The translations under genes were made by a program, and so were the position numbers. A DNA stretch of 64,000 nucleotides. Source: Lacinutrix venerupis. Lineage in GTDB: Bacteria; Bacteroidota; Bacteroidia; Flavobacteriales; Flavobacteriaceae. Shown piece after piece: positions 47,844 to 62,348 of the stretch. A model generated the notes under the pieces. It was not told the DNA's origin and did no database searches. It was given only the letters and a program-made list of their open reading frames with translations. How positions within the stretch are numbered: position 1 is the stretch's first letter; the number at the start of each line of letters is the position of its first letter. The stretch covers positions 1 to 64,000 of the forward strand of contig NZ_RCCH01000005.1 in NCBI RefSeq assembly GCF_003663945.1, in the 5' to 3' direction.

Positions 47844-48086
47844 ATGTCTGTATTTTGTAATCTATTTGGCCATAAATACGAAGTTTCAAAAAAAGTAACG
47901 TATCACGTAAAAGAGTATAAATGTTGTAATTGTAATAAGCAATTAACTACTAATGGCAATGGACAATTAGTAGAGCTTACACCAAAATATCAAGAAATTA
48001 ATTCTATTCTTTCTCGAATACACAATAAAAGGCAAGCAAGATTACGTAGAGAAGAACTACATATTGCTTATAAAATGACATCTTAA
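47844..48086 (+). CDS. Small zinc-finger-like protein
   Basis: An 80-residue protein. The N-terminus MSVFCNLFGHKY plus CCNCNK gives putative zinc ligands C5, H10, C27 and C30, like the CxxxxH...CxxC pattern of DUF1660-type proteins. The rest is basic and helical (SRIHNKRQARLRREELH), possibly nucleic-acid binding. Its stop is 3 bp from the convergent thiL stop, with no terminator between them. Role unknown. Confidence 0.75.
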   Translation: MSVFCNLFGHKYEVSKKVTYHVKEYKCCNCNKQLTTNGNGQLVELTPKYQEINSILSRIHNKRQARLRREELHIAYKMTS

Positions 48087-48089
48087 ATT

Positions 48090-49136
48090 TTAGCTATTAA
48101 AATTCTTCCAACCTTGTGCTTGCAATGGTATTTTTGTATCACCTCTAGTTACTAGATTTGCTCCAACACTTTCATCTGTTATATAACCTATAACAGTTAA
48201 ATTAGGATTTGCTTTTATTTTTGGAAAATCTTTTTGAGAAATAGTCATTAATAACTCATAATCCTCACCTCCATTTAGCACAACAGTTGTACTATCTATA
48301 TTAAATTCTTCGCAAGTAGAAATAACCTGAGGATCAAGTGGTAATTTATCTTCATATAAATCGCATCCTACCTTACTAGCTTTACAAATATGTAAAATTT
48401 CTGAAGAAAGACCATCGCTTACATCAATCATAGATGTTGGTTTTACATCTAAATCTTTAAGAAGTTTTACAATATCTTTTCTAGCTTCAGGTTTTAATTG
48501 ACGCTCCATAATATAAGTATAAGCATCTAAATCTGGTTGGTTATTTGGGTTCACTTTAAATACTTCTTTTTCACGCTCCAAAACTTGAAGTCCCATATAA
48601 GCACCACCTAAATCTCCGGTTACAACAAGCAAATCGTTAGGTTTTGCACCTGTTCTATATACTGCATCTTCAGGATTTACTTCTCCAATTGCTGTAACAG
48701 AAATTAATAAACCAGAAGTTGAAGAGGTAGTATCTCCACCAACAACATCAATATTATATATTTTAGATGCTAAAGCAACACCTTCGTATAAAGCTTCTAA
48801 AGCCTCTAAAGGAAAACGATTTGAAACTGCTATAGAAACTGTTACCTGAGTTGCTTGAGCATTCATAGCGTAAACATCAGATAAATTTACAATTACAGAC
48901 TTATATCCTAAATGCTTTAAAGGAACATAGCTTAAATCGAAATGTACACCTTCTACCAACATATCTGTAGTTACTACAATTTGTTTATTACTAAACTCTA
49001 AAACTGCAGCATCATCTCCAATACTTTTTACTGTAGATGTGTGTTTAATTTCAAATTGTTTGGTTAAGTGATCTATAAGTCCAAATTCTCCTAATTCACT
49101 TAATGGTGTACGTGCTTGATTTTTATCTTCTATCAT
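48090..49136 (-). CDS. thiL: Thiamine-phosphate kinase
   Basis: Phosphorylates thiamine monophosphate to the active cofactor diphosphate; 348 residues in the PurM/AIR-synthase-like fold. Motifs: GEFGLIDHLTKQF, SIGDDAAVLEF, TTDMLVEGVHFDLSYVPLKHLG, NLSDVYAMNAQ, VGGDTTSSTSGL, VVTGDLGGAYMGL, MIDVSDGLSSE and VLNGGEDYELLMT. The Asp-rich motifs are those that bind Mg-ATP in ThiL. It is a single gene; a TATTTTTG box ends 4 nt before the ATG. No other thiamine gene is in the window. Confidence 0.95.
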   Translation of the reverse strand: MIEDKNQARTPLSELGEFGLIDHLTKQFEIKHTSTVKSIGDDAAVLEFSNKQIVVTTDMLVEGVHFDLSYVPLKHLGYKSVIVNLSDVYAMNAQATQVTVSIAVSNRFPLEALEALYEGVALASKIYNIDVVGGDTTSSTSGLLISVTAIGEVNPEDAVYRTGAKPNDLLVVTGDLGGAYMGLQVLEREKEVFKVNPNNQPDLDAYTYIMERQLKPEARKDIVKLLKDLDVKPTSMIDVSDGLSSEILHICKASKVGCDLYEDKLPLDPQVISTCEEFNIDSTTVVLNGGEDYELLMTISQKDFPKIKANPNLTVIGYITDESVGANLVTRGDTKIPLQAQGWKNFNS

Positions 49137-49306: not shown

Positions 49307-50836
49307 ATGTTTAAAAATTACTTTTTATTTCTACTTGTTTTTACTTCTTATTCATTGCTTTCGAATGCCCAAACTCCTTGCGAATCTGGTATGGCAGATA
49401 TTTATCCTTGTAATGATTATGATTTAATGTCTAGAATACCAATTTCCACACTTGCAACAACTTCTGGAAACCCAGAAGGTAGTGACATTTGGGGATGGAC
49501 AGATCCATTAGACGGAAAAGAATATGCCATAATTGCAACAACAAATAGTACGGCTTTTGTAGATATTACAAATCCTATTAATCCTGTATTTTTAGGACGT
49601 ATAGAAACTGCAAATGGAAACAATTCATTTTGGAGAGACGTTAAGGTGTATAACAACCATGCTTTTATTGTTGCAGATAACGTTGGAAATCACGGTATGC
49701 AAATATTTGATTTAACAATTTTAAGAAATGGTGTTGATGCAGATCTAACCTATGATGGCAACCAAGTTTTAAGATTTCAAGGAAATGGAGGCGAAGGAGA
49801 AATTACTATTGGTAGCTGCCACAACATTGTTATAAATGAATTTGAAGGTATTGCTTACTTAGTAGGTTGCGGTTCTGCAAATGGAGGAGGTCCAATTTTT
49901 GTAGATATTTCCAACCCATCAAATCCAAATGTTATTGGAGATTATACTGCTGGCGGATATTCTCACGATGCACAAGTAGTTACATACACAGGTCCAGATA
50001 CAGATTATTACGATCCTGCAAATGGCATAACTGGAAGACAAATTTACATAGGAAGTAATGGAAACTCGGATACTGTAGTAATTTTAGATGTTACAAACAA
50101 AAACAATATTATTCCAATAGGAACTTTCTCTTATCCTCAAATATCTTATGCGCATCAAGGTTGGTTTACAGACGATCAACGTTATTTTATTTTGGGAGAT
50201 GAAACCGATGAACAATCTTTTGGGAACAATACGCGTACTTTAATTTTCGATTTCCAAGATTTAGATGCTAATTTTAACAATCCTGCTTTAAATTTAATTA
50301 ATGATTATTATGGACCAACTGCTGCTATAGACCATAATGGGTATGTTAACGGAAATAAATTTTATATGGCAAACTATAGAGCTGGTTTACGTGTTTTAGA
50401 TGTACCAACATTAATATCGACTAATAATTCTAATGCCGAAATTGGTTATTTTGACACTTTCCCGTCAAGCAATAGCGCTAACTTTAATGGTGCATGGAGT
50501 GTTTATCCTTATTTTTCAAGTGGAAATATTATTATTAGCGATATAGAAAGTGGCCTATTTATAGTAAGAAAAAGTGGTACTTTAAATACAGCTAATTTTA
50601 AATTACAAGAAAATTTTCATTTATCTCCAAATCCTACAACTTCGACTTCGACTTTAAAAGGTGATAAAAATAATATTATTAAATCTATTGAAATCTATAC
50701 TATTCTTGGCCAAAAAGTATATAAAAAGAACAATATTAACAGTCAAGAATTCGTTTTACCTGTAAGCGATTATTCAGCAGGAGTTTATTTAATAAAAATT
50801 AATAATACAATTACCAAAAAACTGGTAATTGAATAA
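49307..50836 (+). CDS. Choice-of-anchor B (LVIVD-repeat) protein with T9SS type A sorting domain
   Basis: A 509-residue protein with a signal peptide ending LSNAQ. The beta-propeller-like body has LVIVD-type repeats: GMADIYPCNDYDLMSRI, DIWGWTDPLDGKEYAIIATT, TAFVDITNPINPVFLGRI, DVKVYNNHAFIVADN and GPIFVDISNPSNPNVIGDY. GGYSHDAQVV and DYAHQGWFTDD-like YAHQGWFTDDQRY carry conserved histidines. The C-terminal ~80 residues (NFHLSPNPTTS, IKSIEIYTILGQKVYKK, YSAGVYLIKI) are the sorting domain, so it is exported by T9SS. It opens a five-gene same-strand cluster and is 11 bp from its paralogue. Confidence 0.9.
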   Translation: MFKNYFLFLLVFTSYSLLSNAQTPCESGMADIYPCNDYDLMSRIPISTLATTSGNPEGSDIWGWTDPLDGKEYAIIATTNSTAFVDITNPINPVFLGRIETANGNNSFWRDVKVYNNHAFIVADNVGNHGMQIFDLTILRNGVDADLTYDGNQVLRFQGNGGEGEITIGSCHNIVINEFEGIAYLVGCGSANGGGPIFVDISNPSNPNVIGDYTAGGYSHDAQVVTYTGPDTDYYDPANGITGRQIYIGSNGNSDTVVILDVTNKNNIIPIGTFSYPQISYAHQGWFTDDQRYFILGDETDEQSFGNNTRTLIFDFQDLDANFNNPALNLINDYYGPTAAIDHNGYVNGNKFYMANYRAGLRVLDVPTLISTNNSNAEIGYFDTFPSSNSANFNGAWSVYPYFSSGNIIISDIESGLFIVRKSGTLNTANFKLQENFHLSPNPTTSTSTLKGDKNNIIKSIEIYTILGQKVYKKNNINSQEFVLPVSDYSAGVYLIKINNTITKKLVIE

Positions 50837-50847
50837 TAAATCTAAAA

Positions 50848-52206
50848 ATGAAAAACACTACATCATACATAATAGTTTGTATTATTGTATTATTTACATT
50901 AAATAACTGTTCAAACGATGATACAGGTAATTCCATTATTCAAATTAGTGATGTAGACGGCGATGGAATACCAGATGCACAAGATAATTGTTTAAACACT
51001 CCTAATCCTAACCAAGAAGATGCTAACAATAACGGTATAGGAGATGCTTGCGAATCTAGCATTACCGCTTTAACTCCTTGTGTAAATGGTATGGCAGGCA
51101 TATATCCTTGTAATGGCATAGATTTGTTATCTGCTATAAGCGCAGAGGTTTTAGGCGGAAGCGCAGGTATAAATGGCGCAGATATTTGGGGATGGACGGA
51201 CCCAACTAATAACAATGAATACGCTATAATAGCTTTAACAAATAGTACTGCCTTTGTAGATGTTACAGATCCTGTAAATCCTCTTTTTTTAGGACGTTTA
51301 AACACCAACGCTGGTACAAACGCTTGGAGAGACGTTAAAGTCTATAACAACCATGCTTTTATAGTTGCAGATAATGTCGGAAATCATGGTATGCAGGTTT
51401 TTGATCTAACTAGATTAAGAAATGTACCAAATGCTCCCGAAAGTTTTACTGCAGATACTGTTTATACAGGAGTTGGTAGCTGCCATAACATTGTTATTAA
51501 CGAAAGTGAAGCTGTTGCCTATTTAGTAGGCTGTACTTCAACAAATGGCGGAGGTCCTATTTTTGTAGACATTTCCAATCCTCTTAATCCAACTTTTTTA
51601 GGCGATTATTCAGCTGGAGGTTACTCTCACGACGCTCAAGTAGTTACATATAACGGGCCAGATTTAGATTATACTGGCAGACAAATATATGTTGGAAGCA
51701 ATGGTAACACAGACAAAGTTGTTATACTTGATGTTACAGATAAAAATAATGTAATTCCAATTAGCGACTTTACATACCCACAAATAGATTACGCACATCA
51801 AGGTTGGTTTACAGACGATCATGCCTACTTTGTTTTAGGTGACGAGTTAGATGAAGATGAATTTGGATTCAACACAAAAACTTTAATCTTTAATTTAACA
51901 GATTTAGATAATCCATCATTATCATCAACTTTTTTTGGACCAACAACTGCTATAGATCATAATGGTTATATTAAAGGAAACGAATTCTACCTTGCTAATT
52001 ATAGAGCTGGATTAAGAATATTAGATATTACTAATATTTCTGCATCATCAAACGCAATGGTAGAAACCGCATTTTTTGACACTTTTCCGGACAATGATAA
52101 TGCAAATTTTAATGGTGTTTGGAGTGTATACCCTTATTTTGAAAGCGGAAATATTATTGTTAGTGATATTGAAGGTGGATTATTTGTATTAAGAAAAAGT
52201 AATTAA
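50848..52206 (+). CDS. Choice-of-anchor B lipoprotein with thrombospondin type 3 repeat
   Basis: A 452-residue paralogue of the preceding gene. It has a lipobox (LNNC, Cys21) followed by SNDD, an acidic start typical of surface-exposed Bacteroidota lipoproteins. A Ca2+-binding thrombospondin type 3 repeat comes next (DVDGDGIPDAQDNC, NNNGIGDAC). The same LVIVD propeller follows: GMAGIYPCNGIDLLSAI, DIWGWTDPTNNNEYAIIALT, TAFVDVTDPVNPLFLGRL and YAHQGWFTDDHAYF. It lacks the C-terminal sorting domain of its paralogue, so the two copies reach the surface by different routes. The next gene starts 7 bp downstream. Confidence 0.9.
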   Translation: MKNTTSYIIVCIIVLFTLNNCSNDDTGNSIIQISDVDGDGIPDAQDNCLNTPNPNQEDANNNGIGDACESSITALTPCVNGMAGIYPCNGIDLLSAISAEVLGGSAGINGADIWGWTDPTNNNEYAIIALTNSTAFVDVTDPVNPLFLGRLNTNAGTNAWRDVKVYNNHAFIVADNVGNHGMQVFDLTRLRNVPNAPESFTADTVYTGVGSCHNIVINESEAVAYLVGCTSTNGGGPIFVDISNPLNPTFLGDYSAGGYSHDAQVVTYNGPDLDYTGRQIYVGSNGNTDKVVILDVTDKNNVIPISDFTYPQIDYAHQGWFTDDHAYFVLGDELDEDEFGFNTKTLIFNLTDLDNPSLSSTFFGPTTAIDHNGYIKGNEFYLANYRAGLRILDITNISASSNAMVETAFFDTFPDNDNANFNGVWSVYPYFESGNIIVSDIEGGLFVLRKSN

Positions 52207-52213
52207 TTTTTAA

Positions 52214-53575
52214 ATGAACTATAATAAAAACGTACTATTTTATCTATCTCTTATTGGAATTACTATCATATCAATAAGCTGTAAAAACGATGATGGAGAT
52301 ATTGCTGTAATTACAGAAAATAATACTTCTGCTACCGGTCTAGTTACTGCTGTAAAAACATTTGGAGGCTCTATTAACGACAGCGCTCAAGAAATTGTAA
52401 GTACCAGCGACGGAGGTTATGCTGTTTTAGGCTTTACACAAAGCATGGATGGCGATATTATAGATAAACAACATGAAAGTTATAATTTTTGGGTTTTAAA
52501 GTTTAATCAAGATAATGAAATAGAATGGAATAAAACCTATGGTGGAACGGGCGATGATAAAGGAGAAGACATTATTCAAACTAATGATGGCGGTTATGCC
52601 ATTTTAGGAGAAAGTTTTAGCAATAATGAAGATGTTTCTAGCAACAATGGTCAAAATGATTTTTGGTTTGCAAAGCTAGATGCTTCAGGAAATATTTTAT
52701 GGCAAAAGTCTTTTGGATACCAAGGTGCAGATTACGGAATTTCAGTTATTCAAACTAATGATTCCGGCTACTTAATTACCGGAGTATTAGATGTTACAGC
52801 CTCCAATGGAGAAGGCAATACAAAGCAAAATAATACAAATCATGCAGGAGGAGATTATTGGGCAATAAAATTAGATAATTCTGGTACTTTACAATGGAGT
52901 AAATATTATGGTGGCTTACTTTCCGATACACCACAAAATGTAGTACAAACAGAAGACAATGGCTATATTATGGTGGGAAGCTCAGATAGCGACGATACTG
53001 ATATTTCTAACAATATTGGCTCTTATGATTTTTGGGTTGTTAAAATTTCTGAAACAGGCAATATTGAATGGGAAAAATCTTTTGGAGGAGAAGAAATAGA
53101 CGATGCCTGGTCTATAGTTAAGTCTAGCGATGGAAATTACTTAATAGCAGGAGACACTAGAAGTAATAATGTAGATATTTCAAATAATATTGGTGCGGCA
53201 GATTTATGGCTAATTAAAATTTCTCCTTCAGGCGAATTACTTTGGGAAAAAACCTTAGGAGGAACAAGTTTTGATGCCGCAAGAGATATTTCTGCAACAC
53301 AAGATGGCGGATTTTTATTAGCCGGAAGCTCAAGAAGTAGCGACGGAGATGTTTCGCAAAATAAAGGACAAAACGATGTTTGGGCACTTAAAATAAACAG
53401 TGTTGGCAACATAGAGTGGGAAGCTACAATTGGAGGAACCAACATAGATTATGGTTATGGCATTACCGAATTAAACAATAAAAAAGTTGTTGTAGTTGGT
53501 GACACCTACAGTAACGATGAAGATATTACTGAAAACAAAGGATTCTCAGACTTACTAATTATTAACATTGATTAA
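52214..53575 (+). CDS. Repeat beta-propeller lipoprotein
   Basis: A 453-residue protein with lipobox ISISC (Cys23) followed by KNDDGD. The body is about seven repeats of ~55-60 residues, each with GG..D.A..I..T.DGGY...G, SND.D...N.G..DFW..K.. and G.I.W.K..GG. Examples are TYGGTGDDKGEDIIQTNDGG, NDFWFAKLDASGNILWQKSF and SFGGEEIDDAWSIVKSSDG. This is the T9SS-associated delta-60/PQQ-like propeller family, probably a seven-bladed surface propeller. The MbnP-like gene follows with a 1-nt gap. Ligand unknown. Confidence 0.87.
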   Translation: MNYNKNVLFYLSLIGITIISISCKNDDGDIAVITENNTSATGLVTAVKTFGGSINDSAQEIVSTSDGGYAVLGFTQSMDGDIIDKQHESYNFWVLKFNQDNEIEWNKTYGGTGDDKGEDIIQTNDGGYAILGESFSNNEDVSSNNGQNDFWFAKLDASGNILWQKSFGYQGADYGISVIQTNDSGYLITGVLDVTASNGEGNTKQNNTNHAGGDYWAIKLDNSGTLQWSKYYGGLLSDTPQNVVQTEDNGYIMVGSSDSDDTDISNNIGSYDFWVVKISETGNIEWEKSFGGEEIDDAWSIVKSSDGNYLIAGDTRSNNVDISNNIGAADLWLIKISPSGELLWEKTLGGTSFDAARDISATQDGGFLLAGSSRSSDGDVSQNKGQNDVWALKINSVGNIEWEATIGGTNIDYGYGITELNNKKVVVVGDTYSNDEDITENKGFSDLLIINID

Positions 53576-53576
53576 A

Positions 53577-54341
53577 ATGAAAAAAACATTCATCTTATTA
53601 TTATCTACCTTTTTAATTTTTGCTTCTTGCGCAGAGGATAACGATGATAATTTAGTTGCTAATGCAAATGTAAATTTTACGTTTTCTCATACTTGGGACA
53701 ATACAATAATAAATAATAACAATCTAACTACAGAAACAGTAGTAAATGCCAATGGTGAATCTATAAACATTACAAGACTAAGGTATCTTGTTTCAAGGTT
53801 ACAATTAACAAATACTGCTGGAGAAACGTATAGCTTTGATGGATATAAATTTACAGATTTAGAAGCACCAAACACCTATAATTTTACACCAGTAAACAAT
53901 ACTATTCCAACTGGAACTTACACCTTAAAATTTGTTTGGGGATTTAATGAAGAAGATAATATTGACGGTACTTATTTAGATTTAAATAGCGCTTCTTGGA
54001 ATTGGCCAACAATGTTAGGTGGTGGTTATCACTTTTTACAGTTTGATGGTATGTATAATGTAGACACCTCACCTAGCCCGTTTAATTTCCATAACGGAAC
54101 CGCTCGTGTAGACACAGATAACTTCGAACAAAATTTTGCAATTATTGAATTAGAAACACCTATTGTAATAACAAATAATACTACAATAAATGTAAACATG
54201 AATATTGCAGAATTTTTTAAAAACCCAAACACGTGGGATTTAAATGTTTTAGACACACCATTAATGCCTAATTATACTGCTCAAAAAATGATACAAGAAA
54301 ATGTTTTAAGTGTATTTAGCATAACAAATGTTACACAGTAA
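53577..54341 (+). CDS. MbnP-like lipoprotein
   Basis: The ATG at 53577 gives 254 residues; a start at 53568 would overlap the previous gene. The lipobox is FASC (Cys18) followed by AEDNDD. The MbnP family pattern is visible: VNFTFSHTWDN, NITRLRYLVSRLQL, GTYTLKFVWGFNEE, ASWNWPTMLGGGYHFLQFDG and FNFHNGT. In characterised relatives a tryptophan is oxidised to kynurenine by a partner di-heme enzyme and contributes to copper binding. Here H38, W40, W121, W141, W143, H152 and H172 are candidates. The di-heme gene follows 8 bp downstream, as in MbnP/MbnH pairs. Copper binding is inference. Confidence 0.85.
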   Translation: MKKTFILLLSTFLIFASCAEDNDDNLVANANVNFTFSHTWDNTIINNNNLTTETVVNANGESINITRLRYLVSRLQLTNTAGETYSFDGYKFTDLEAPNTYNFTPVNNTIPTGTYTLKFVWGFNEEDNIDGTYLDLNSASWNWPTMLGGGYHFLQFDGMYNVDTSPSPFNFHNGTARVDTDNFEQNFAIIELETPIVITNNTTINVNMNIAEFFKNPNTWDLNVLDTPLMPNYTAQKMIQENVLSVFSITNVTQ

Positions 54342-54349
54342 ACTAATTT

Positions 54350-55417
54350 ATGAAAAATTGGTTTATATATATAATATTAATTATTTCTATTTCGGCTTGC
54401 TCTAAAGAGAGCGAACCAGATACAGAAACTTATGAGCCTACTCCACTTTCATTAGATATTCCTGAAATATTTAAAAACAACATCATCCCACCAGTAATAC
54501 CAATTAACAATCAACTAACAGTTCAAGGTGTTGCATTAGGTAAAAAGTTATTTTATGATAAAAAACTTTCGGGAGACCAAACTATGGCTTGTGCCTCTTG
54601 TCATTCTCCACAACACGCATTTACAGACAATACATCTACAAGCGCTGGAATAGATGGCACTTTTGGAGACAGAAACTCTATGCCATTATTTAATTTAGCT
54701 TGGAATTATAACGAGCGCTTTACTTGGGATGGAGAGGAGCTAAGCCTAGAACGTCAAGCATTAGAACCTGTTCAAAACCCTATAGAAATGCATAGTGATT
54801 GGGACAACGTAGTAGATAGGCTGCAAAGCGATGCAGAGTATCCAGAATTATTTCGTTTAGCATTTAAAACTTCAATAATTACAAAAGAGCTCACCACCAA
54901 AGCTATAGCTCAATTTGAGCGCACACTTATTTCGGCAAATTCAAAATTCGATAAATTTTCATTAGGTCAAGCAACGCTTACACCTCAAGAACAAAATGGC
55001 TTAAATGTTTTTATGGACGAAGATAGAGGAGATTGCCTCCATTGTCATGGAAACCCAAATAATCCGCTATGGACAGATAATTCTTTTCATAACAATGGCT
55101 TAGATGCCACATTTACAGATTTAGGTTTAGGAAGTGTTACTGGAGATGAAAACGATAATGGCAAATTTAGAAGCCCGTCGCTTAGAAACCTTGCCTATAC
55201 AGCTCCTTATATGCATGATGGCAGATTTGAAACTTTAGACCAAGTTATAGAATTTTACAGCACAGGACTACAAGATTCTGAAACCATAGATCCACTTATG
55301 AAAAAAGTAGAATTTGGTGGTGTTAATCTTTCAGAAGGAGACAAAGCAGATTTAAAAGCTTTTTTATTATCACTTTCAGACCCATCATTTCTTACCAACC
55401 CTGACTTTCAAGAGTAA
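54350..55417 (+). CDS. Di-heme cytochrome-c peroxidase/MbnH-like lipoprotein
   Basis: A 355-residue protein with lipobox ISAC (Cys17) followed by SKESEPD. Two haem c sites are present: CASCH (C81, C84, H85) and CLHCH (C229, C232, H233). The cytochrome-c peroxidase family pattern is clear: LGKKLFYDKKLSGDQTMACA, FGDRNSMPLFNLAWN, LEPVQNPIEMH, GKFRSPSLRNLAYTAPYMHD and ETLDQVIEFYSTG. Position after the MbnP-like gene favours an MbnH-type role, oxidising a Trp of the partner, over simple peroxide detoxification; both remain possible. It is the last gene of the surface cluster. Confidence 0.92.
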   Translation: MKNWFIYIILIISISACSKESEPDTETYEPTPLSLDIPEIFKNNIIPPVIPINNQLTVQGVALGKKLFYDKKLSGDQTMACASCHSPQHAFTDNTSTSAGIDGTFGDRNSMPLFNLAWNYNERFTWDGEELSLERQALEPVQNPIEMHSDWDNVVDRLQSDAEYPELFRLAFKTSIITKELTTKAIAQFERTLISANSKFDKFSLGQATLTPQEQNGLNVFMDEDRGDCLHCHGNPNNPLWTDNSFHNNGLDATFTDLGLGSVTGDENDNGKFRSPSLRNLAYTAPYMHDGRFETLDQVIEFYSTGLQDSETIDPLMKKVEFGGVNLSEGDKADLKAFLLSLSDPSFLTNPDFQE

Positions 55418-55546: not shown

Positions 55547-55876
55547 ATGATTAAAGTTTCTGATACAGCTAAAAAGAAAGTCGTTGAACTCATGACAGAT
55601 GACGGCTTTAATCCAAACGAACATTTCGTTCGTGTTGGTGTTAAAAGTGGAGGTTGCTCTGGTTTATCTTACGATTTAAAGTTTGATAAAATCAAGGAAG
55701 AAGATGATAAAGTTTTTGAAGATAATGATGTAAAAATCATAGTCGATAAAAAAAGCTTTTTATATCTTATTGGCACCACTTTAGAATACTCTGGAGGTTT
55801 AAACGGAACAGGTTTCGTGTTTAATAATCCAAACGCAAACCGTACCTGTGGTTGTGGAGAATCATTTTCATTATAA
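55547..55876 (+). CDS. sufA: Iron-sulfur assembly A-type carrier
   Basis: A 109-residue HesB/IscA-family protein that carries and delivers Fe-S clusters. The three conserved cysteines are C37 (SGGCSGLSYDL), C101 and C103 (RTCGCGESFSL). It is the first gene of the SUF group, 18 bp before sufB, and has its own -7 box. Whether it is SufA or an ErpA-like carrier cannot be decided from sequence; the operon position favours SufA. Confidence 0.93.
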   Translation: MIKVSDTAKKKVVELMTDDGFNPNEHFVRVGVKSGGCSGLSYDLKFDKIKEEDDKVFEDNDVKIIVDKKSFLYLIGTTLEYSGGLNGTGFVFNNPNANRTCGCGESFSL

Positions 55877-55894
55877 AAATTGAAAGAACGTATT

Positions 55895-57343
55895 ATGTCG
55901 AAGTACACTGAAGACGATTTAAGAGAAGAATTAAAAACAAAGGAATACGAGTACGGTTTCTATACCGATATAGAATCTGAAACTTTTCCTATTGGTTTAA
56001 ACGAAGATATTGTTCGTGCTATTTCTAAGAAAAAAGAAGAGCCAGAGTGGATGACCGCATGGAGACTAGAAGCTTTTAGAGTTTGGGAATCTATGGAAGA
56101 ACCAGATTGGGCAAATGTTAATTACACCAAACCAGATTTTCAAGCTATTGCTTATTATTCTGCTCCAAAATCTATAGACCCAAACAAAACATTAGACGAT
56201 GTAGATCCAGATTTACTAGCAATGTATAAAAAGTTAGGAATCTCTGTAGACGAACAAAAGAAAATGAACAATATTGCTATGGATATTGTTGTAGATTCTG
56301 TTTCTGTAGCAACAACCTTTAAAAAAACTCTCGCAGAAAAAGGTATTATTTTCATGCCAATTTCTGAAGCCATACAAGAACACCCAGAATTGGTTAAAAA
56401 ATATATTGGTACAGTTGTTCCAACTAAAGACAATTTTTATGCAGCATTAAACTCTGCAGTATTTAGTGATGGTTCTTTCTGTTATATTCCAAAAGGCGTA
56501 AAATGCCCAATGGAGTTGTCTACATATTTTAGAATTAACCAAGCAGGAACAGGACAATTTGAGCGTACATTAGTAATTGCAGACGAAGGTAGTTATGTTT
56601 CTTACCTAGAAGGCTGTACAGCTCCTAGTCGTGATGAAAACCAATTACACGCTGCAGTTGTAGAGCTTATTGCGCTTGACGATGCAGAAATAAAATACTC
56701 AACAGTACAAAACTGGTTTCCAGGAAATGCAGAAGGAAAAGGTGGTGTTTATAACTTTGTAACCAAAAGAGGTTTATGCGAAAAAAATGCTAAAATCTCA
56801 TGGACTCAAGTTGAAACAGGAAGTGCTGTAACATGGAAATATCCAAGTTGCGTTCTAAAAGGAGATAATTCTGTAGGTGAATTTTATTCTATTGCTGTAA
56901 CAAATAATTATCAACAAGCAGATACAGGAACAAAAATGATTCATTTGGGAAAAAACACCAAATCAACCATTATTTCTAAAGGTATCTCAGCTGGAAAATC
57001 TCAAAATTCATATCGTGGATTAGTACAAGTAAGCTCTCGTGCAGAAAACGCACGTAACTTTAGCCAATGTGATAGTTTACTTATGGGTAACGAGTGTGGT
57101 GCACACACATTCCCATATATAGAAGCAAATAACAAAAGTGCTATGATAGAGCACGAAGCTACAACAAGTAAAATTGGTGAAGACCAAATTTTCTATTGTA
57201 ACCAACGTGGTATCGATACCGAAAAAGCAATAGCATTAATTGTAAATGGCTTTAGTAAAGATGTATTAAACAAATTACCAATGGAATTTGCAGTAGAAGC
57301 ACAAAAACTATTAGAAATTAGCCTTGAAGGTTCTGTAGGATAA
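55895..57343 (+). CDS. sufB: Fe-S cluster scaffold subunit SufB
   Basis: Scaffold of the SufBC2D complex on which new Fe-S clusters form. From the ATG at 55895 it has 482 residues ([13 protein letters not shown]), the usual length. Family hallmarks: [80 protein letters not shown] and the C-terminal [19 protein letters not shown] with the His/Glu at the SufD interface. A lipoprotein gene separates it from sufC, which is unusual. Confidence 0.96.
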
Positions 57344-57383
57344 AAGTTACACCAAATAGCAAGTTGTTTTTAAATAAATAAAA

Positions 57384-57788
57384 ATGAAAAAAATATTAAC
57401 CTTACTGCTTATGTTTTCCATTTTTACAAATTGTAAAAATGATGCAAAAACAGAAACACCAATAGACGATACAAATAAAACAGTAGAACAAAACGATGGT
57501 TTAACCACATTAAATGGTGAGTTTTCTTATTATGAAGACGCTGCAGTTTTACAAGTTGGAAACAGCGCTATATACGGTGTTGTATTAAATGAAAAAATGC
57601 ACGAATTACATAAAATGGGAAAACCATTTAGAACAGAAGATACAGATGGTGTACTTGTTCAAGTTCGTGGTAAAATAATACCAAAACCAGAAGGTGAAGA
57701 AGGATGGCCATATAGTATTGATATTAAAGAAATTATTAGTGTTAAAGAACCATCTGTAAAAAAAGAAGTGATTAAAATTGGAAAATAA
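57384..57788 (+). CDS. Small lipoprotein of unknown function inside the suf operon
   Basis: A 134-residue protein with lipobox FTNC (Cys17) followed by KNDAKTETP. The compact C-terminal domain (about 40-120) has GEFSYYEDAAVLQVGNSAIY, VVLNEKMHELHKMGKPFRTE and VLVQVRGKIIPKPEGEEGWP; it is a small beta-rich domain I do not recognise. The stop codon is 4 bp before the sufC ATG, so it is translationally close to the Fe-S genes, although the product would act in the envelope. Confidence 0.82.
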   Translation: MKKILTLLLMFSIFTNCKNDAKTETPIDDTNKTVEQNDGLTTLNGEFSYYEDAAVLQVGNSAIYGVVLNEKMHELHKMGKPFRTEDTDGVLVQVRGKIIPKPEGEEGWPYSIDIKEIISVKEPSVKKEVIKIGK

Positions 57789-57792
57789 AACT

Positions 57793-58545
57793 ATGTTACA
57801 AATAAATGATTTACACGCAAGTGTTGACGACAAATCTATTTTAAGAGGTATTAACCTTGAAGTAAAAGCAGGCGAAGTTCATGCAATTATGGGACCTAAT
57901 GGTTCAGGTAAAAGCACTTTAGCTTCTGTAATAGCTGGAAAAGAAGAATACGAAGTCGAGAAAGGACAAATTGTTTTAAATGGAGAAGATTTAGAAGACT
58001 TAGCTGCCGAAGAACGTGCACACAAAGGTATTTTCTTATCATTTCAATATCCTGTAGAAATACCTGGAGTCTCTGTAACAAACTTTATAAAAACAGCAAT
58101 AAACGAAACTCGTAAAGCAAAAGGCTTAGAAGATATGCCTGCAAAAGATATGCTTAAACTTATTCGTGAAAAATCCGAATTATTAGAAATAGATAGAAAA
58201 TTCTTATCGCGTTCTTTAAACGAAGGTTTTTCTGGAGGAGAAAAGAAACGTAACGAAATTTTCCAAATGGCAATGCTTGAGCCAAAGTTAGCCATCTTAG
58301 ACGAAACAGATTCTGGTTTAGATATTGATGCACTTCGTATTGTTGCCAATGGAGTAAACAAATTAAAATCTAAAGACAATGCTGTTGTAGTAATTACACA
58401 TTACCAGCGTTTATTAGATTATATAGTTCCAGATTTTGTACATGTTTTATTAGATGGACGTATTGTTAAATCTGGTGGAAAAGAATTAGCGCACGAACTT
58501 GAAGAAAAAGGTTACGACTGGATTAAAGAAGAAGTGAACGCATAA
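57793..58545 (+). CDS. sufC: Fe-S cluster assembly ATPase SufC
   Basis: The ABC-type ATPase of the SufBC2D complex, with 250 residues from the ATG at 57793. An upstream in-frame ATG at 57778 overlaps the lipoprotein gene. Walker A is GPNGSGKSTLASVIAG, the Q-loop lies in FLSFQYPVEIPGVS, the signature is SGGEKKRNE, Walker B is LAILDETDSGLD and the switch is VVITHYQRLLDY. LRGINLEVKAGEVHAIMG is the typical start region. It is followed by a 145-bp gap with repeats before sufD. Confidence 0.97.
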   Translation: MLQINDLHASVDDKSILRGINLEVKAGEVHAIMGPNGSGKSTLASVIAGKEEYEVEKGQIVLNGEDLEDLAAEERAHKGIFLSFQYPVEIPGVSVTNFIKTAINETRKAKGLEDMPAKDMLKLIREKSELLEIDRKFLSRSLNEGFSGGEKKRNEIFQMAMLEPKLAILDETDSGLDIDALRIVANGVNKLKSKDNAVVVITHYQRLLDYIVPDFVHVLLDGRIVKSGGKELAHELEEKGYDWIKEEVNA

Positions 58546-58556
58546 AATAGTAAGCA

Positions 58557-58599
58557 GTAATCAAATTAAGTAGGCAGTTACTTACTAAAATTTGATTAC
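58557..58599 (+). other. Intercistronic hairpin between sufC and sufD
   Basis: GTAATCAAATT (58557-58567) pairs with AATTTGATTAC (58589-58599), with a weaker inner AAGTA/TACTT stem. No T-run follows, so it is more likely an mRNA-stability or partial-attenuation element than a terminator. Confidence 0.5.
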
Positions 58600-58651
58600 C
58601 CATGTTTAATTATAAGTAGGCAGAAAACAGAAACAGTATACCAAAAAGTAA

Positions 58652-58686
58652 ACTGAAAACTGAAAACTGAGTACTGAAGACTTAAA
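58652..58686 (+). repeat. Five in-phase ACTGAAA-like heptamers upstream of sufD
   Basis: ACTGAAA, ACTGAAA, ACTGAGT, ACTGAAG and ACTTAAA start at 58652, 58659, 58666, 58673 and 58680, a strict 7-nt phase. They end 4 nt before the sufD ATG. Such ACTGAAA runs look non-coding; their function is unknown. Confidence 0.7.
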
Positions 58687-58690
58687 AATA

Positions 58691-60004
58691 ATGAGTTTAA
58701 AAGAAAAATTAGTATCATCCTTTTTAGCATTCGAAAATGAAGTCGATGTTGATTCGCATATACACAATATTCGAAATGAAGCTATTAAAACATTTGAAGC
58801 CAAAGGTTTTCCATCAAAAAAAGAAGAAGCATGGAAGTACACATCGCTTAATAGTGTTTTAAAACACGATTATAGTGTATTCCCGAAGCAAGAGAATGCT
58901 ATAGATTATAAAGACATAAAAAAGTATTTTATTCACGATATAGATACTTATAAAATTGTATTTATCGATGGAAAATATTCTTCTCATTTATCACAAGTAA
59001 CACACGATGGTATAGATGTATGCTTAATGTCTGCTGCTTTAAATAAGCCAAAGTATAGATTAGTTATCGAAAATTATTTTAATAAAATTGCAACTAAAGA
59101 TAGCTTATCTTCACTAAACACAGCATTTTCTAACGAAGGAGCTTACATACATATTCCAAAAAACAAATTGGTAGAAAAACCAATTCAAATTATACACTTT
59201 TCTACAGGAAACGAGGCTGCATTATTGCTTCAACCTAGAAATTTAATTGTTGTAGACGAGAATTCTCATGTACAAATAATTGAGCGTCACCAAAGTTTAA
59301 CAGATAATCCTGTTTTAACCAATAGTGTTACAGAAATTTTTGCTAATAAGCGTGCAATTGTAGATTACTACAAAATCCAAAACGATAATAAAAATGCTTC
59401 TTTAATAGATAGCACTTTTGTAAACCAAAAAGACCAAACTAACTGTTTTGTCCATACTTTTTCTTTTGGAGGTAAATTAACACGTAACAACCTTAACTTT
59501 TACCAAAATGGTGAACGTATGGACTCTACCATGAAAGGTATTACCATTATTGGAGATAAGCAACATGTAGACCACAACACATTAGTACATCATATTGAGC
59601 CAAATTGCGAAAGTCACCAAGATTATAAAGGTATTTTTGCAGACAGTGCAACTGGTGTTTTTAATGGTAAAGTAGTTGTTGAAAAAGAAGCGCAAAAAAC
59701 TAACGCATTCCAGTCTAATAATAATATTTTATTAAGCGATAAAGCATCGATAAACACAAAACCTCAATTAGAGATTTTTGCTGATGATGTTAAATGTTCT
59801 CACGGTTGTACCATTGGACAATTAGATGAAAGTGCACTGTTTTACATGAAACAACGTGGTATTCCAGAGAAAGAGGCAAGAGCCTTATTAATGTTTGCTT
59901 TTAGTAATAACGTTTTAAGTTCTGTAAAAATTCCAGAATTAAAACAACGTATTACTAAAATAATAGCAAACAAGTTAGGTGTTAATATAGGTTTCGATTT
60001 GTAG
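58691..60004 (+). CDS. sufD: Fe-S cluster assembly protein SufD
   Basis: A paralogue of SufB that completes the SufBC2D scaffold and is needed for iron entry; 437 residues. The N-terminal helical part has FPSKKEEAWKYTSLNSVLKH. The beta-helix core has THTFSFGGKLTRNNLNFYQN-type FVHTFSFGGKLTRNNL and DHNTLVHHIEPNCESHQDYK. The C-terminus is DDVKCSHGCTIGQLDESALF, MKQRGIPEKEARALLMFAF, both family signatures. It ends at a strong terminator, after which the strand switches to the PadR operon. Confidence 0.96.
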   Translation: MSLKEKLVSSFLAFENEVDVDSHIHNIRNEAIKTFEAKGFPSKKEEAWKYTSLNSVLKHDYSVFPKQENAIDYKDIKKYFIHDIDTYKIVFIDGKYSSHLSQVTHDGIDVCLMSAALNKPKYRLVIENYFNKIATKDSLSSLNTAFSNEGAYIHIPKNKLVEKPIQIIHFSTGNEAALLLQPRNLIVVDENSHVQIIERHQSLTDNPVLTNSVTEIFANKRAIVDYYKIQNDNKNASLIDSTFVNQKDQTNCFVHTFSFGGKLTRNNLNFYQNGERMDSTMKGITIIGDKQHVDHNTLVHHIEPNCESHQDYKGIFADSATGVFNGKVVVEKEAQKTNAFQSNNNILLSDKASINTKPQLEIFADDVKCSHGCTIGQLDESALFYMKQRGIPEKEARALLMFAFSNNVLSSVKIPELKQRITKIIANKLGVNIGFDL

Positions 60005-60028
60005 ACTACAAAAAGCTTTATATTAGAT

Positions 60029-60064
60029 AAAAAGCCTCAAACTTAATATGTGTTTGAGGCTTTT
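60029..60064. terminator. Bidirectional terminator after sufD
   Basis: AAAAGCCTCAAAC and GTTTGAGGCTTTT form a 13-bp stem with a 9-nt loop. It also serves the convergent PadR operon. Confidence 0.85.
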
Positions 60065-60069
60065 ATATT

Positions 60070-60249
60070 TTAGTTCCTAGCGAGTTTATATTTTTGATAA
60101 AAATACATTGGTATTAAACCAAAATTTAAAAATATAAAACCAATGAAAACTATAATACCTCTATAAGGCCAAGTTAAAAATTCGAACATAGCTCCTATTC
60201 CTAAAGTAAAAAAGGTTAAAAAGCCAATAACATAAAATGATTTTTTCAT
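60070..60249 (-). CDS. 59-residue membrane microprotein
   Basis: An ATG at 60249 opens 59 codons to a TAA at 60072-60070. The product has two transmembrane helices: VIGFLTFFTLGIGAMFEFL (about 7-25) and GIIVFIGFIFLNFGLIPMYF (about 31-50), then a basic tail YQKYKLARN. It starts 11 nt after the stop of the HAAS-like membrane gene and is the last gene of the padR operon. The phrase LTWPYRG echoes MHWPYAN of its neighbour, so the two may share an origin. Function unknown. Confidence 0.7.
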   Translation of the reverse strand: MKKSFYVIGFLTFFTLGIGAMFEFLTWPYRGIIVFIGFIFLNFGLIPMYFYQKYKLARN

Positions 60250-60260
60250 ACTAAAAGTTA

Positions 60261-60689
60261 TTAAGAGAATTTGTAGCGTATTTTTTTATGTTTAGAGTAA
60301 AACAAAAGTGGTATTAATAGAAACGCAAATAGTAATATTGCAACAATTAACATTGCATTTGCATAAGGCCAATGCATTATCTTAAAAAGAAAACCAATTA
60401 CCAGCAAGATAACCATTGTTAAGCCTACTATAAACTTTAAGATATTAACAACTTTAGCTTTTTTAGAAAATTTTTGAAAATTAGTTTCTAATTGTAAGTT
60501 TTGAAAACTAGAATAACCACCAAATTTTTGTATTGCTTCTTTATATAATTCATTAAAATTATTAGACTCTCTACTTTCAACATAACTACAAATATGGTCT
60601 ACTAAATCTTCTTTTAAATCTTGAGAATTAATACCATAAAGTTTTAAACTGTTTTCTATAAATCTTATATGTTCCTCTTCAATTTGCAT
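60261..60689 (-). CDS. PadR-associated membrane protein (HAAS/DUF1700-like)
   Basis: A 142-residue protein. The N-terminal ~75 residues are a helical HAAS-like signalling module (IRFIENSLKLYGINSQDLKE, DLVDHICSYVESRE, YKEAIQKFGGYSSF), followed by two transmembrane helices (about 83-103 and 108-131). Such genes are commonly paired with PadR regulators and sense membrane stress in characterised Gram-positive examples; that role here is inference. Its ATG overlaps the padR stop (shared base at 60689), so the two are translationally coupled. Confidence 0.82.
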   Translation of the reverse strand: MQIEEEHIRFIENSLKLYGINSQDLKEDLVDHICSYVESRESNNFNELYKEAIQKFGGYSSFQNLQLETNFQKFSKKAKVVNILKFIVGLTMVILLVIGFLFKIMHWPYANAMLIVAILLFAFLLIPLLFYSKHKKIRYKFS

Positions 60690-61024
60690 TATACAATAGG
60701 TTTTGGGTTAAATATTAAATTTAATGTTGCTATAAAATTATTAATCTCTTCAGTCACTTCCTCTACAACTTTTTTTCCTTCAGGAGTTACTTTATAATAC
60801 TTTCTTACTCGTTTACCAATAAATACTTTTTCAGTTTTTAATGTCCCTTTAGCTTCTAATTTATGTAAAATTGGATACAGTGCTCCTTCAGAAATATCAA
60901 TCTTATTAAGAGTTATTTTTTTTACCTCTTGTGTTATTTCATAACCATACATTTGGTTACGCTCACTTATAAGCTTTAAAATAATAGGTTGCAACGTTCC
61001 TTTTGTTAATTCTTTACTATACAT
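60689..61024 (-). CDS. PadR-family transcriptional regulator
   Basis: A 111-residue winged-helix repressor of the short PadR type: LTKGTLQPIILKLISERNQM, YGYEITQEVKKIT, SEGALYPILHKLEAKGTLKT and KRVRKYYKVTPEGKKVVEEV. The ligand is unknown. A TATACA-N17-TGTATA inverted repeat just before the gene overlaps its -7 box and is the likely autoregulatory operator. It is first in a three-gene operon with two small membrane proteins. Confidence 0.93.
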   Translation of the reverse strand: MYSKELTKGTLQPIILKLISERNQMYGYEITQEVKKITLNKIDISEGALYPILHKLEAKGTLKTEKVFIGKRVRKYYKVTPEGKKVVEEVTEEINNFIATLNLIFNPKPIV

Positions 61025-61028
61025 ATTT

Positions 61029-61061
61029 CAAATATACATTTTATTTAAATGCATTTGTATA
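61029..61061 (-). promoter_or_regulatory. padR -7 box and candidate PadR operator
   Basis: TATATTTG (61036-61029, minus strand) ends 4 nt before the padR ATG. The arms TATACA (61033-61038) and TGTATA (61056-61061) form an inverted repeat overlapping it, in line with autorepression. Confidence 0.5.
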
Positions 61062-61100
61062 AAATTTAAATATTTTTATCATTTATATTTTTCTTTACAC

Positions 61101-61129
61101 TTGTTTTTATCAAACAAACCTTAAATTTG
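61101..61129 (+). promoter_or_regulatory. sufS promoter
   Basis: TTG (61101-61103), an 18-nt spacer, TAAATTTG (61122-61129): a full -33/-7 pair. The sufS ATG follows after only 4 nt, so the mRNA is probably leaderless. Confidence 0.75.
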
Positions 61130-61133
61130 TATT

Positions 61134-62348
61134 ATGTTAGATTGGAAAAAAATAAGAGCAGATTTCCCAATACTTAATCGTAAAGTAAATGGTAAACCTT
61201 TGGTGTATTTTGACAATGCTGCAACCTCGCAAACTCCAAAACAAGTAATTGATGTTATTGTGGATTATTACAGTAATTATAATGCTAATATTCACAGAGG
61301 TGTGCATTCATTAAGTCAAGAAGCTACAGATAAATATGAAGCTGCAAGACACACTATTCAGCATCATTTTAATGCAAAACATGCTTACGAGATTATATTA
61401 ACTTCTGGCACAACAGAAAGTATTAATTTAGTAGCTCATGGCTTTGCTTCACTCTTAGAAAAAGACGATGAAGTTATCGTATCGGCTTTAGAGCATCATA
61501 GTAATATTGTGCCTTGGCAAATGCTATGCGAAAAAACTGGAGCCATTTTAAAAGTTATACCAATGAACCAAAATGGTGAGTTGGAAATGGATAGCTACTC
61601 TAAATTGCTTTCAAATAAAACAAAACTAGTATTTGTCAATCATATTTCTAATGCATTAGGTACTATAAATCCTATCGAAAAAATTATAGAGCAAGCGCAT
61701 AATGTTGGTGCTGCAGTTTTAATAGATGGAGCACAATCTTGCCCACATGTAAAACCAGACGTGCAAGCATTAAATGTAGACTTTTACGTTGCTTCGGCAC
61801 ATAAAATGTGTGGTCCAACAGGTGTTGGCATGTTATACGGAAAAGAAGAGTGGCTTAATAAACTACCGCCTTATCAAGGTGGCGGAGAAATGATAGACCA
61901 AGTAAGTTTTACAAAAACAACTTATGCAGGTTTACCGCATAAATTTGAAGCAGGAACGCCAAATATTTGCGGCGGTATAGCTTTTGGAGCTGCATTAAAT
62001 TATATGAATGCTATTGGGTTTAATAATATTGCTGCTTACGAAAAAGAACTTTTAGATTATGGAACTAAAAGACTTTTAGAAATTGAAGGTTTAAAAATAT
62101 ATGGCACTTCAATAAACAAAACATCTGTTATTAGTTTTAATCTTAAAGGTATTCATCCATACGATGTTGGTACACTATTAGACAAAATGGGAATTGCCGT
62201 AAGAACAGGACACCACTGCGCACAACCAATTATGGATTATTATAAAATTCCAGGAACTATACGCGCTTCTTTTGCTTTTTACAACACTAAAGCAGAAATA
62301 GATACCTTAATAGAAGGTGTTAAAAAAGCAAAAATGATGTTGTCATAA
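61134..62348 (+). CDS. sufS: Cysteine desulfurase SufS
   Basis: PLP enzyme that takes sulfur from cysteine for Fe-S assembly; 404 residues, group II type. PLP-binding K224 is in ASAHKMCGPTG, D198 in LIDGAQS and H121 in EHHSNIVPW. The persulfide cysteine is C362 in RTGHHCAQPIM, in the short active-site loop that needs SufE. VYFDNAATSQTPKQV and INLVAHGFA are typical. It is separated from sufABCD by the convergent PadR operon and has its own promoter. A META-domain lipoprotein and sufE follow. Confidence 0.97.
   Translation: MLDWKKIRADFPILNRKVNGKPLVYFDNAATSQTPKQVIDVIVDYYSNYNANIHRGVHSLSQEATDKYEAARHTIQHHFNAKHAYEIILTSGTTESINLVAHGFASLLEKDDEVIVSALEHHSNIVPWQMLCEKTGAILKVIPMNQNGELEMDSYSKLLSNKTKLVFVNHISNALGTINPIEKIIEQAHNVGAAVLIDGAQSCPHVKPDVQALNVDFYVASAHKMCGPTGVGMLYGKEEWLNKLPPYQGGGEMIDQVSFTKTTYAGLPHKFEAGTPNICGGIAFGAALNYMNAIGFNNIAAYEKELLDYGTKRLLEIEGLKIYGTSINKTSVISFNLKGIHPYDVGTLLDKMGIAVRTGHHCAQPIMDYYKIPGTIRASFAFYNTKAEIDTLIEGVKKAKMMLS

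What the first reader, a model, noticed from the sequence alone, without database searches (positions are those of the whole stretch)
49307..55417. Five-gene surface cluster: paired choice-of-anchor B proteins, propeller lipoprotein, MbnP-like protein and di-heme partner
Five genes lie head to tail with gaps of 11, 7, 1 and 8 bp. Three of the four lipoproteins have acidic residues within four positions of the lipobox Cys (SNDD, KNDD, AEDND) and the fourth has SKESEPD, a pattern linked to surface display in Bacteroidota. The first protein instead uses a T9SS sorting domain. The MbnP-like and MbnH-like genes suggest that a Trp is oxidised on the MbnP-like protein to build a copper site. No methanobactin, TonB receptor or copper transporter is next to it, so the whole may be a surface metalloprotein assembly with no described function.
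Basis: partly seen in the sequence, partly recalled or inferred. Interest (0 to 1): 0.72.

Follow-up and report, generated by a model that had tools for sequence, protein, structure and literature searches.

The report
Surface operon with swapped MbnP cassette
A conserved cluster of cell-surface genes in flavobacteria carries a copper-type protein and its usual di-heme partner, but the copper site looks rebuilt and the protein has been swapped between two old versions many times, so it probably does not work the textbook way.

Summary
The five genes, gaps and anchors are as described. Across Flavobacteriaceae they form one operon: 1-5 choice-of-anchor-B propellers (cB), a second propeller lipoprotein (PROP), then MbnP and MbnH. 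Of 41 sampled genomes with both cB and MbnP, 39 have cB just upstream of MbnP on the same strand. MbnP-MbnH is the optional part. The cluster lies between thiL and SUF genes in 113 of 132 loci, so shared ancestry explains part of the adjacency.

The copper/kynurenine mechanism is not general here. The window MbnP keeps the MbnP fold, WxW and the ligand-type His. But the Met of canonical M-x-W-x-W is absent in 0 of 108 operon-type rows kept, i.e. lost in all, while 25 of 25 MbnPs checked outside the operon have it. The oxidisable Trp is Phe in 40 of 106 rows; 36 of those loci keep an MbnH.

New: operon-type MbnP comes in two types, about 41% identical, that split once on the MbnP tree but need at least nine switches on trees of neighbouring genes. 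MbnP alone has been exchanged in place.

The parts
49307..50836 (+). cB1: choice-of-anchor B propeller, 509 aa, T9SS C-terminal sorting domain
   Evidence: TIGR04312 464 bits, TIGR04183 4e-10; variable extra copy in relatives
50848..52206 (+). cB2: choice-of-anchor B propeller lipoprotein, 452 aa, TSP3 repeat before the propeller; seven blades with invariant W114, W160, H213, H261, H317, H371, W425
   Evidence: TIGR04312 525 bits; TSP_3; invariants in 59 of 59 rows; model pLDDT 90, pTM 0.81
52214..53575 (+). PROP: beta-propeller-type lipoprotein, 453 aa, found directly after cB in relatives
   Evidence: sub-threshold match to LipL53-type propeller model; directly after cB in 38 of 38 linked and 13 of 13 unlinked loci fetched and in 78 of 80 named loci
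53577..54341 (+). MbnP, operon type I: lipoprotein, 254 aa, W141-N-W143, H172, new invariants H152, W220, M230; no Met before WxW
   Evidence: PF20243 90 bits; model matches 7l6g; site residues; type I
54350..55417 (+). MbnH-like di-heme lipoprotein, 355 aa: C81xxC84H85, C229xxC232H233, W126, Y303
   Evidence: PF03150 200.8 bits; TIGR04039 271 bits, below cut-off; best PDB match 6e1c; residue conservation

Best explanation
A flavobacterial outer-surface operon made of two modules. Core: cB, a seven-bladed propeller with an invariant W-W-H-H-H-H-W series (one residue per blade), delivered as a lipoprotein and/or by T9SS, with a second propeller, PROP, as partner. Accessory: an MbnP-MbnH pair. 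I think cB is the metal-dependent working unit (enzyme or binder); MbnP is a metal-binding lipoprotein that captures or loads metal, most likely copper; and MbnH, a MauG/MbnH-type di-heme enzyme, oxidises an aromatic residue of MbnP. In most of the family that residue cannot be part of the textbook M-x-W-x-W site; invariant W220, with new invariant H152 and M230, is my candidate. MbnP exists as two old types that have been exchanged as a single-gene cassette between genera. Shown: the operon, its fixed site, the residue losses and gains, the MbnP fold match, the exchange of types. Inferred: which metal, direction of transfer, MbnH target, and cB activity.
For: Order cB-PROP-MbnP-MbnH in 38 of 38 linked loci fetched and 67 of 80 named loci; cB-PROP without MbnP in 13 of 13 unlinked loci fetched. 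Small or negative gaps. In L069-L072 the same slot before sufA holds an MbnP and MbnH of canonical type. Operon-type MbnP: Met 0 of 108, H152 106 of 106, W220 and M230 105 of 105, H172 106 of 106. MbnH heme and relay residues kept in W-type and F-type loci. cB ring residues invariant in 59 of 59 rows and at or near the first strand of each blade. Best fold match of cB2 is a metal-dependent propeller phosphotriesterase. MbnP types: 1 change on own tree, 10 (9 forced) on PROP+MbnH, 14 (9 forced) on thiL+sufB; identity dip confined to MbnP in four cross-type pairs and absent in two same-type pairs.
Against: The locus is at a fixed syntenic site, so adjacency is partly inheritance. cB-PROP occurs without MbnP-MbnH, so MbnH is not needed for cB. 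L203 has cB without PROP; L174, L191 and L198 have MbnP without MbnH. Outside the window's family I saw no linkage (read by eye, list cut). The cB fold match is distant (14% identity, TM 0.57) and 975 PDB chains reach E 0.001, mostly ordinary propellers among the 50 shown. No residue of PROP or MbnH was seen to track MbnP type in the columns tested (output partly cut). No metal, modification or activity was measured.
Confidence: 0.35

Rival explanations
1. One reading: MbnH oxidises the first Trp of WxW (W141) of this MbnP to kynurenine and a copper site forms as in Methylosinus MbnP.
For: Window MbnP keeps W141, W143 and H172, matches 7l6g in fold and has an MbnH with intact heme and relay residues. 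Canonical-type pairs fill the same slot in four genera.
Against: The Met two places before WxW, which 7l6g and 25 of 25 MbnPs outside the operon have, is absent in 108 of 108 operon-type rows. W141 is Phe in 40 of 106 rows and 36 of those loci keep MbnH. The MbnP_like_WxW model TIGR04052 gives no match to the window protein.
Confidence: 0.2
2. MbnH here is chiefly a peroxidase or redox partner at the surface and MbnP a scaffold; no residue is modified.
For: Trp target lost in 36 loci that keep MbnH; the protein belongs to the di-heme peroxidase family PF03150.
Against: Tyr303 where peroxidases have another ligand (my reading of the alignment with 1iqc, where a Met aligns) points to the MauG/MbnH side; MbnH accompanies MbnP in nearly all loci.
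Confidence: 0.2
3. The operon is a variable surface structure (phage receptor or recognition protein); exchange of MbnP types reflects selection for diversity and metal chemistry is secondary.
For: Repeated single-gene exchange of MbnP at a fixed locus; lipoboxes with acidic residues after Cys in most MbnPs by a rough pattern.
Against: Only two types were seen, and both keep invariant H152, H172, W220 and M230, which suggests a chemical role.
Confidence: 0.12
4. The five genes are neighbours by inherited gene order only and have no joint function.
For: thiL-like and SUF genes, with no expected link, are also conserved neighbours (126 and 117 of 132 loci).
Against: Small or negative gaps on one strand; a different MbnP-MbnH lineage occupies the same slot; the 32 lowest-scoring MbnPs (under 115 bits) of the 120-genome sample all lie in this operon and 25 of the 26 MbnPs outside it were checked and are canonical.
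Confidence: 0.1

Closest known systems
MbnP-MbnH pair (PDB 7l6g MbnP, 6e1c di-heme enzyme; PF20243, TIGR04052, TIGR04039)
   Same: Fold of MbnP, di-heme partner next door with both hemes, W and Y aligned to 6e1c, His of the HxG motif
   Different: No M-x-W-x-W Met; first Trp often Phe; new invariant H152, W220, M230; embedded in a two-propeller surface operon
MopE/SACCP and CorA/CorB of methanotrophs (PMC3912023, abstract and passages; PMC3621798, passages)
   Same: Surface copper protein next to a di-heme cytochrome c peroxidase family partner; kynurenine near copper
   [quoted passage not shown] not compared here; no propeller operon described in the passages seen
mtoX-SCO1-mauG operons (SBP56 methanethiol oxidase; PMC5739008, passages)
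   Same: Propeller protein with conserved His and Trp beside a MauG-like gene
   Different: No SCO1 gene among the five genes or the annotated neighbours; cB is TIGR04312, not shown to be related to SBP56; here MbnP replaces SCO1
Sphingobium TCM1 phosphotriesterase (PDB 5hrm, 5ioj)
   Same: Best fold match of cB2, E 2e-13; weak LVIVD-type sequence match in which a His of 5hrm aligns with cB H213; that this His is a metal ligand is recalled only
   Different: 14% identity, TM 0.57; sequence E 0.04-0.7; activity of cB unknown

Membership tests
MbnP copper proteins | Pfam MbnP model PF20243 above its cut-off | tested here: met
   90.2 bits, cut-off 27
MbnP copper proteins | NCBIfam MbnP_like_WxW (TIGR04052) above its cut-off | tested here: not met
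   No match for the window protein; the canonical paralogue scores 61.6 against 140, so the cut-off is strict for Bacteroidota
MbnP copper proteins | Fold of solved MbnP | tested here: met
   7l6g chains are the only matches with E <= 0.001, TM 0.52-0.54
MbnP copper proteins | WxW motif | tested here: met
   W141-N-W143 in the window; both Trp in 25 of 106 operon-type rows only
MbnP copper proteins | Met two places before WxW (taken by me as the Met ligand) | tested here: not met
   Ala in the window; 0 of 108 operon-type rows; present in 7l6g and 25 of 25 checked outside the operon
MbnP copper proteins | His of the HxG motif | tested here: met
   H172, 106 of 106 rows covering it
MbnP copper proteins | Kynurenine and bound copper | not testable with these tools
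   Needs mass spectrometry and metal analysis
MbnH/MauG di-heme enzymes | CCP_MauG domain and two CXXCH motifs | tested here: met
   PF03150 200.8 bits; both motifs kept
MbnH/MauG di-heme enzymes | Inter-heme Trp and axial-type Tyr aligned with 6e1c | tested here: met
   W126 and Y303 align; kept in all linked rows that cover them
MbnH/MauG di-heme enzymes | TIGR04039 above its cut-off | tested here: not met
   271.1 against 362.85 bits; 0 of 120 genomes sampled pass it
Choice-of-anchor B family | TIGR04312 above its cut-off | tested here: met
   464 and 525 bits, cut-off 100
T9SS cargo (gene 1) | C-terminal type A sorting domain | tested here: met
   TIGR04183 39.5 bits, cut-off 23
mtoX-SCO1-mauG type operon | SCO1 gene beside the propeller and the MauG-like gene | tested here: not met
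   No SCO1 match among the five genes and annotated neighbours

The most novel reading that the evidence does not exclude
In a fixed flavobacterial surface operon a single metalloprotein gene, MbnP, is a two-type cassette shared across genera: its di-heme maturase and propeller partners stay put while MbnP is exchanged. In type II the maturase's known target Trp has become Phe in about half of the rows, and in both types the site has been rebuilt around new invariant His, Trp and Met residues, so MbnH must act on a different residue or partner. That would be a protein-derived cofactor system that changed its target.
Probability: 0.35. Interest if true: 0.75.

Novelty: new variant of a known kind. 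Interest (0 to 1): 0.58.

Why it matters
As I recall it, MbnH is known for one reaction on one Trp of MbnP. A natural set in which MbnH is kept while that Trp is Phe (36 loci) lets one ask directly what else the enzyme does. The two MbnP types in close relatives of one genus (window and Lacinutrix algicola) are a ready-made natural swap experiment on metal choice or surface recognition. The operon also gives a lead on choice-of-anchor B propellers: 'choice-of-anchor B' found no paper in the library, nor did 'LVIVD repeat' with 'Bacteroidetes'; 'LVIVD' alone found 19 papers, 15 listed, none opened.

Tried and rejected
Considered and lowered: (a) kynurenine-copper site as the general mechanism, because of residue losses with MbnH kept. 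(b) MbnH as a maturase needed by cB, because cB-PROP occurs without MbnP-MbnH. (c) Hidden tandem paralogues as the cause of the two MbnP types: no locus in the maps shows two MbnPs. (d) Co-occurrence as sole proof of function: weakened by the fixed thiL-SUF site. (e) Tracking of MbnP type by residues of PROP or MbnH, or by cB copy number: nothing significant in the part of the output I saw; six columns per protein were put to the pair test and the output was cut.

Limits and dropped rows: trees are FastTree with local support; one search warned of a long branch (L123) and of long branches that meet. Rows L170 and L178 are truncated and lack the site columns; L138, L170 and L178 were left out of the tree; L140 and L195 out. 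After removal the 36 Phe loci with MbnH are 33. Lipobox and T9SS calls rest on rough patterns. One of the 26 MbnPs outside the operon (in G087) had no locus and was not checked.

On recount one number was mended: the MbnPs under 115 bits are 32, not 35.
Full report
OBSERVATION. Families: choice-of-anchor B twice, a beta-propeller-type lipoprotein, MbnP, and an MbnH-like di-heme protein. The genome has a second MbnP-MbnH pair of canonical type on another contig. Choice-of-anchor B occurs twice in this genome, both copies here.

CONSERVATION. In 120 genomes drawn from the window's family (119 genera), choice-of-anchor B (cB) occurs in 63 (96 copies) and MbnP in 57 (65 copies). 41 genomes have both. 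In 39 of these a cB lies upstream of an MbnP on the same strand with a gap of 1414-2455 bp, room for gene 3. I fetched the 38 linked loci other than the window; 38 of 38 read cB(1-5)-PROP-MbnP-MbnH. Of the 24 genomes whose cB is not linked to MbnP I fetched 13; 13 of 13 have PROP directly after cB. A scan of named genomes with a cB alignment kept the best 80 loci (more existed), nearly all titled Flavobacteriaceae or its genera. Of the 80, 67 have the full order, 6 have cB-PROP-MbnP without MbnH (three cut by contig ends), 5 have cB-PROP (three cut) and 2 cB alone (one cut). L174, L191 and L198 have MbnP without MbnH although the contig goes on; L203 has cB without PROP. So cB-PROP is the near-invariant core and MbnP-MbnH the optional pair. 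In a phylum-wide sample of 247 genomes (cB in 77, MbnP in 66), comparing listed places by eye, I saw linkage within 5 kb only in the window's own family (the match list was cut).

CAVEAT: ONE LOCUS. Of 132 loci (window included, six genomes counted twice) 126 hold the thiL-like gene and 117 SUF genes near the cluster; 113 hold both (neighbours). Adjacency is thus partly inherited gene order. Three facts argue for joint function nevertheless. Gaps are small or negative in most loci. The 32 MbnPs under 115 bits in the 120-genome sample are all in this operon, while the 26 MbnPs outside it score 115.5-165.3, and 25 of these 26 were checked and carry canonical M-x-W-x-W and HxG motifs (25 of 25). 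In four genera (L069-L072) the slot between PROP and sufA holds an MbnP of canonical type with an MbnH that does not group with the operon-type MbnHs.

THE MbnP SITE. The window MbnP model (pLDDT 93.2, pTM 0.85) has as its only PDB matches with E <= 0.001 the six chains of 7l6g, MbnP of Methylosinus trichosporium. A profile search aligns 7l6g as GMAWNW...VHVGS. From the published MbnP work (not held) I recall a site of one His, one Met and a kynurenine from the first Trp of WxW; that the Met is the one two places before WxW is my inference. In the operon-type rows the Met is present in 0 of 108. Of the 106 rows that cover the site, W141 is W in 66 and F in 40; W143 is W in 25 and V in 81; H172 is H in 106. 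Of the 40 F loci, 36 hold an MbnH (33 after removing genomes counted twice). MbnH in these keeps both CXXCH motifs, W126 and Y303 wherever the row covers them. The F state needs 5 changes, at least 3 by starred branches, on an approximate tree. New near-invariant residues appear instead: H152 (106 of 106), W220 and M230 (105 of 105), W40 (104 of 108), H38 (90 of 108). A mechanism that needs W141 cannot be general; W220 is my candidate for a new target. Distances could not be measured.

TWO MbnP TYPES, EXCHANGED SINGLY. Operon-type MbnPs fall into type I (WxW, 25 rows) and type II ([W/F]xV, 81 rows). On the MbnP tree the split is one change. On a tree of PROP+MbnH from 94 loci it needs 10 changes, 9 forced by starred branches. 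On a tree of the outer flanks thiL+sufB from 89 loci it needs 14, 9 forced. In 2131 pairs with flank identity of 82% or more, PROP and MbnH identity does not depend on type (same/different medians 59/58 and 68/69), while MbnP goes from a median of 56 (range 36-93) within types to 41 (range 33-50) between types. Window against Lacinutrix algicola: cB 83, PROP 79, MbnH 85, MbnP 45 percent identity. In DNA the dip lies within the MbnP gene in four cross-type pairs and is absent in two same-type pairs. No locus map shows both types, so replacement by recombination in conserved flanks fits better than loss of hidden paralogues. No residue in PROP or MbnH, nor cB copy number, was seen to follow the type.

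THE PROPELLERS. The cB2 model (pLDDT 90.0, pTM 0.81) shows, by my reading of its strand list, seven four-stranded blades. W114, W160, H213, H261, H317, H371 and W425, invariant in 59 of 59 rows, fall in or just before the first strand of successive blades. I infer a ring at the mouth of the axis and a metal or substrate site. The best fold match is the Sphingobium TCM1 phosphotriesterase 5hrm (E 2e-13, TM 0.57), ahead of many ordinary propellers; sequence matches to it are weak (E 0.04-0.7), and in one of them a His of 5hrm aligns with H213. That this His is a metal ligand I only recall. Of 27 loci with two cB copies, 15 read T9SS then lipoprotein and 7 the reverse by a rough pattern test: the same propeller is sent out by both routes.

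LITERATURE. [quoted passage not shown] PMC3912023 (passages including part of the abstract): kynurenine near copper in CorA. PMC5739008 (passages): mtoX-SCO1-mauG operons. PMC11656708 (passages) gave no metal-ligand data on the phosphotriesterase. 'metallo-mystery pair' found no paper. I found no paper on this operon in searches; only open-licence papers are held, and no search was made for the operon as such.

VERDICT. A real, conserved, surface-directed operon and a new variant of the MbnP-MbnH pair. The copper-kynurenine reading remains possible for type I members such as the window's, but is not the general rule. The strongest new results are the repeated single-gene exchange of MbnP and the loss of the known target Trp while an intact-looking MbnH is kept.

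Noticed in passing
L008:8237-11108 (own genome, contig C4): Second MbnP-MbnH pair with canonical M-x-W-x-W and HxG motifs, followed by a 330-aa protein with a Cys-rich start that has no Pfam or NCBIfam match.
   Followed up: partly
window 57384-57788: Small lipoprotein between sufB and sufC, NlpE_C match at 23.5 bits (cut-off 22); relatives of it were found in 86 of 130 loci. NlpE is a copper-linked lipoprotein in E. coli (recalled).
   Followed up: no
window 48090-49136 and 55547-62348: The cluster sits between a thiL-like gene and the SUF operon across Flavobacteriaceae: 113 of 132 loci have both.
   Followed up: yes
L203, L174, L191, L198: Partial operons: cB without PROP (L203) and Phe-type MbnP without MbnH (L174, L191, L198).
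   Followed up: partly
L081 (G090), L092 (G078): Tandem cB arrays: five cB copies before one PROP in L081 and three in L092; both genomes have six cB copies in all.
   Followed up: no
window 47844-48086: 80-aa ORF at the cut-off of DUF1660, a prophage-linked Pfam family (21.4 bits).
   Followed up: no
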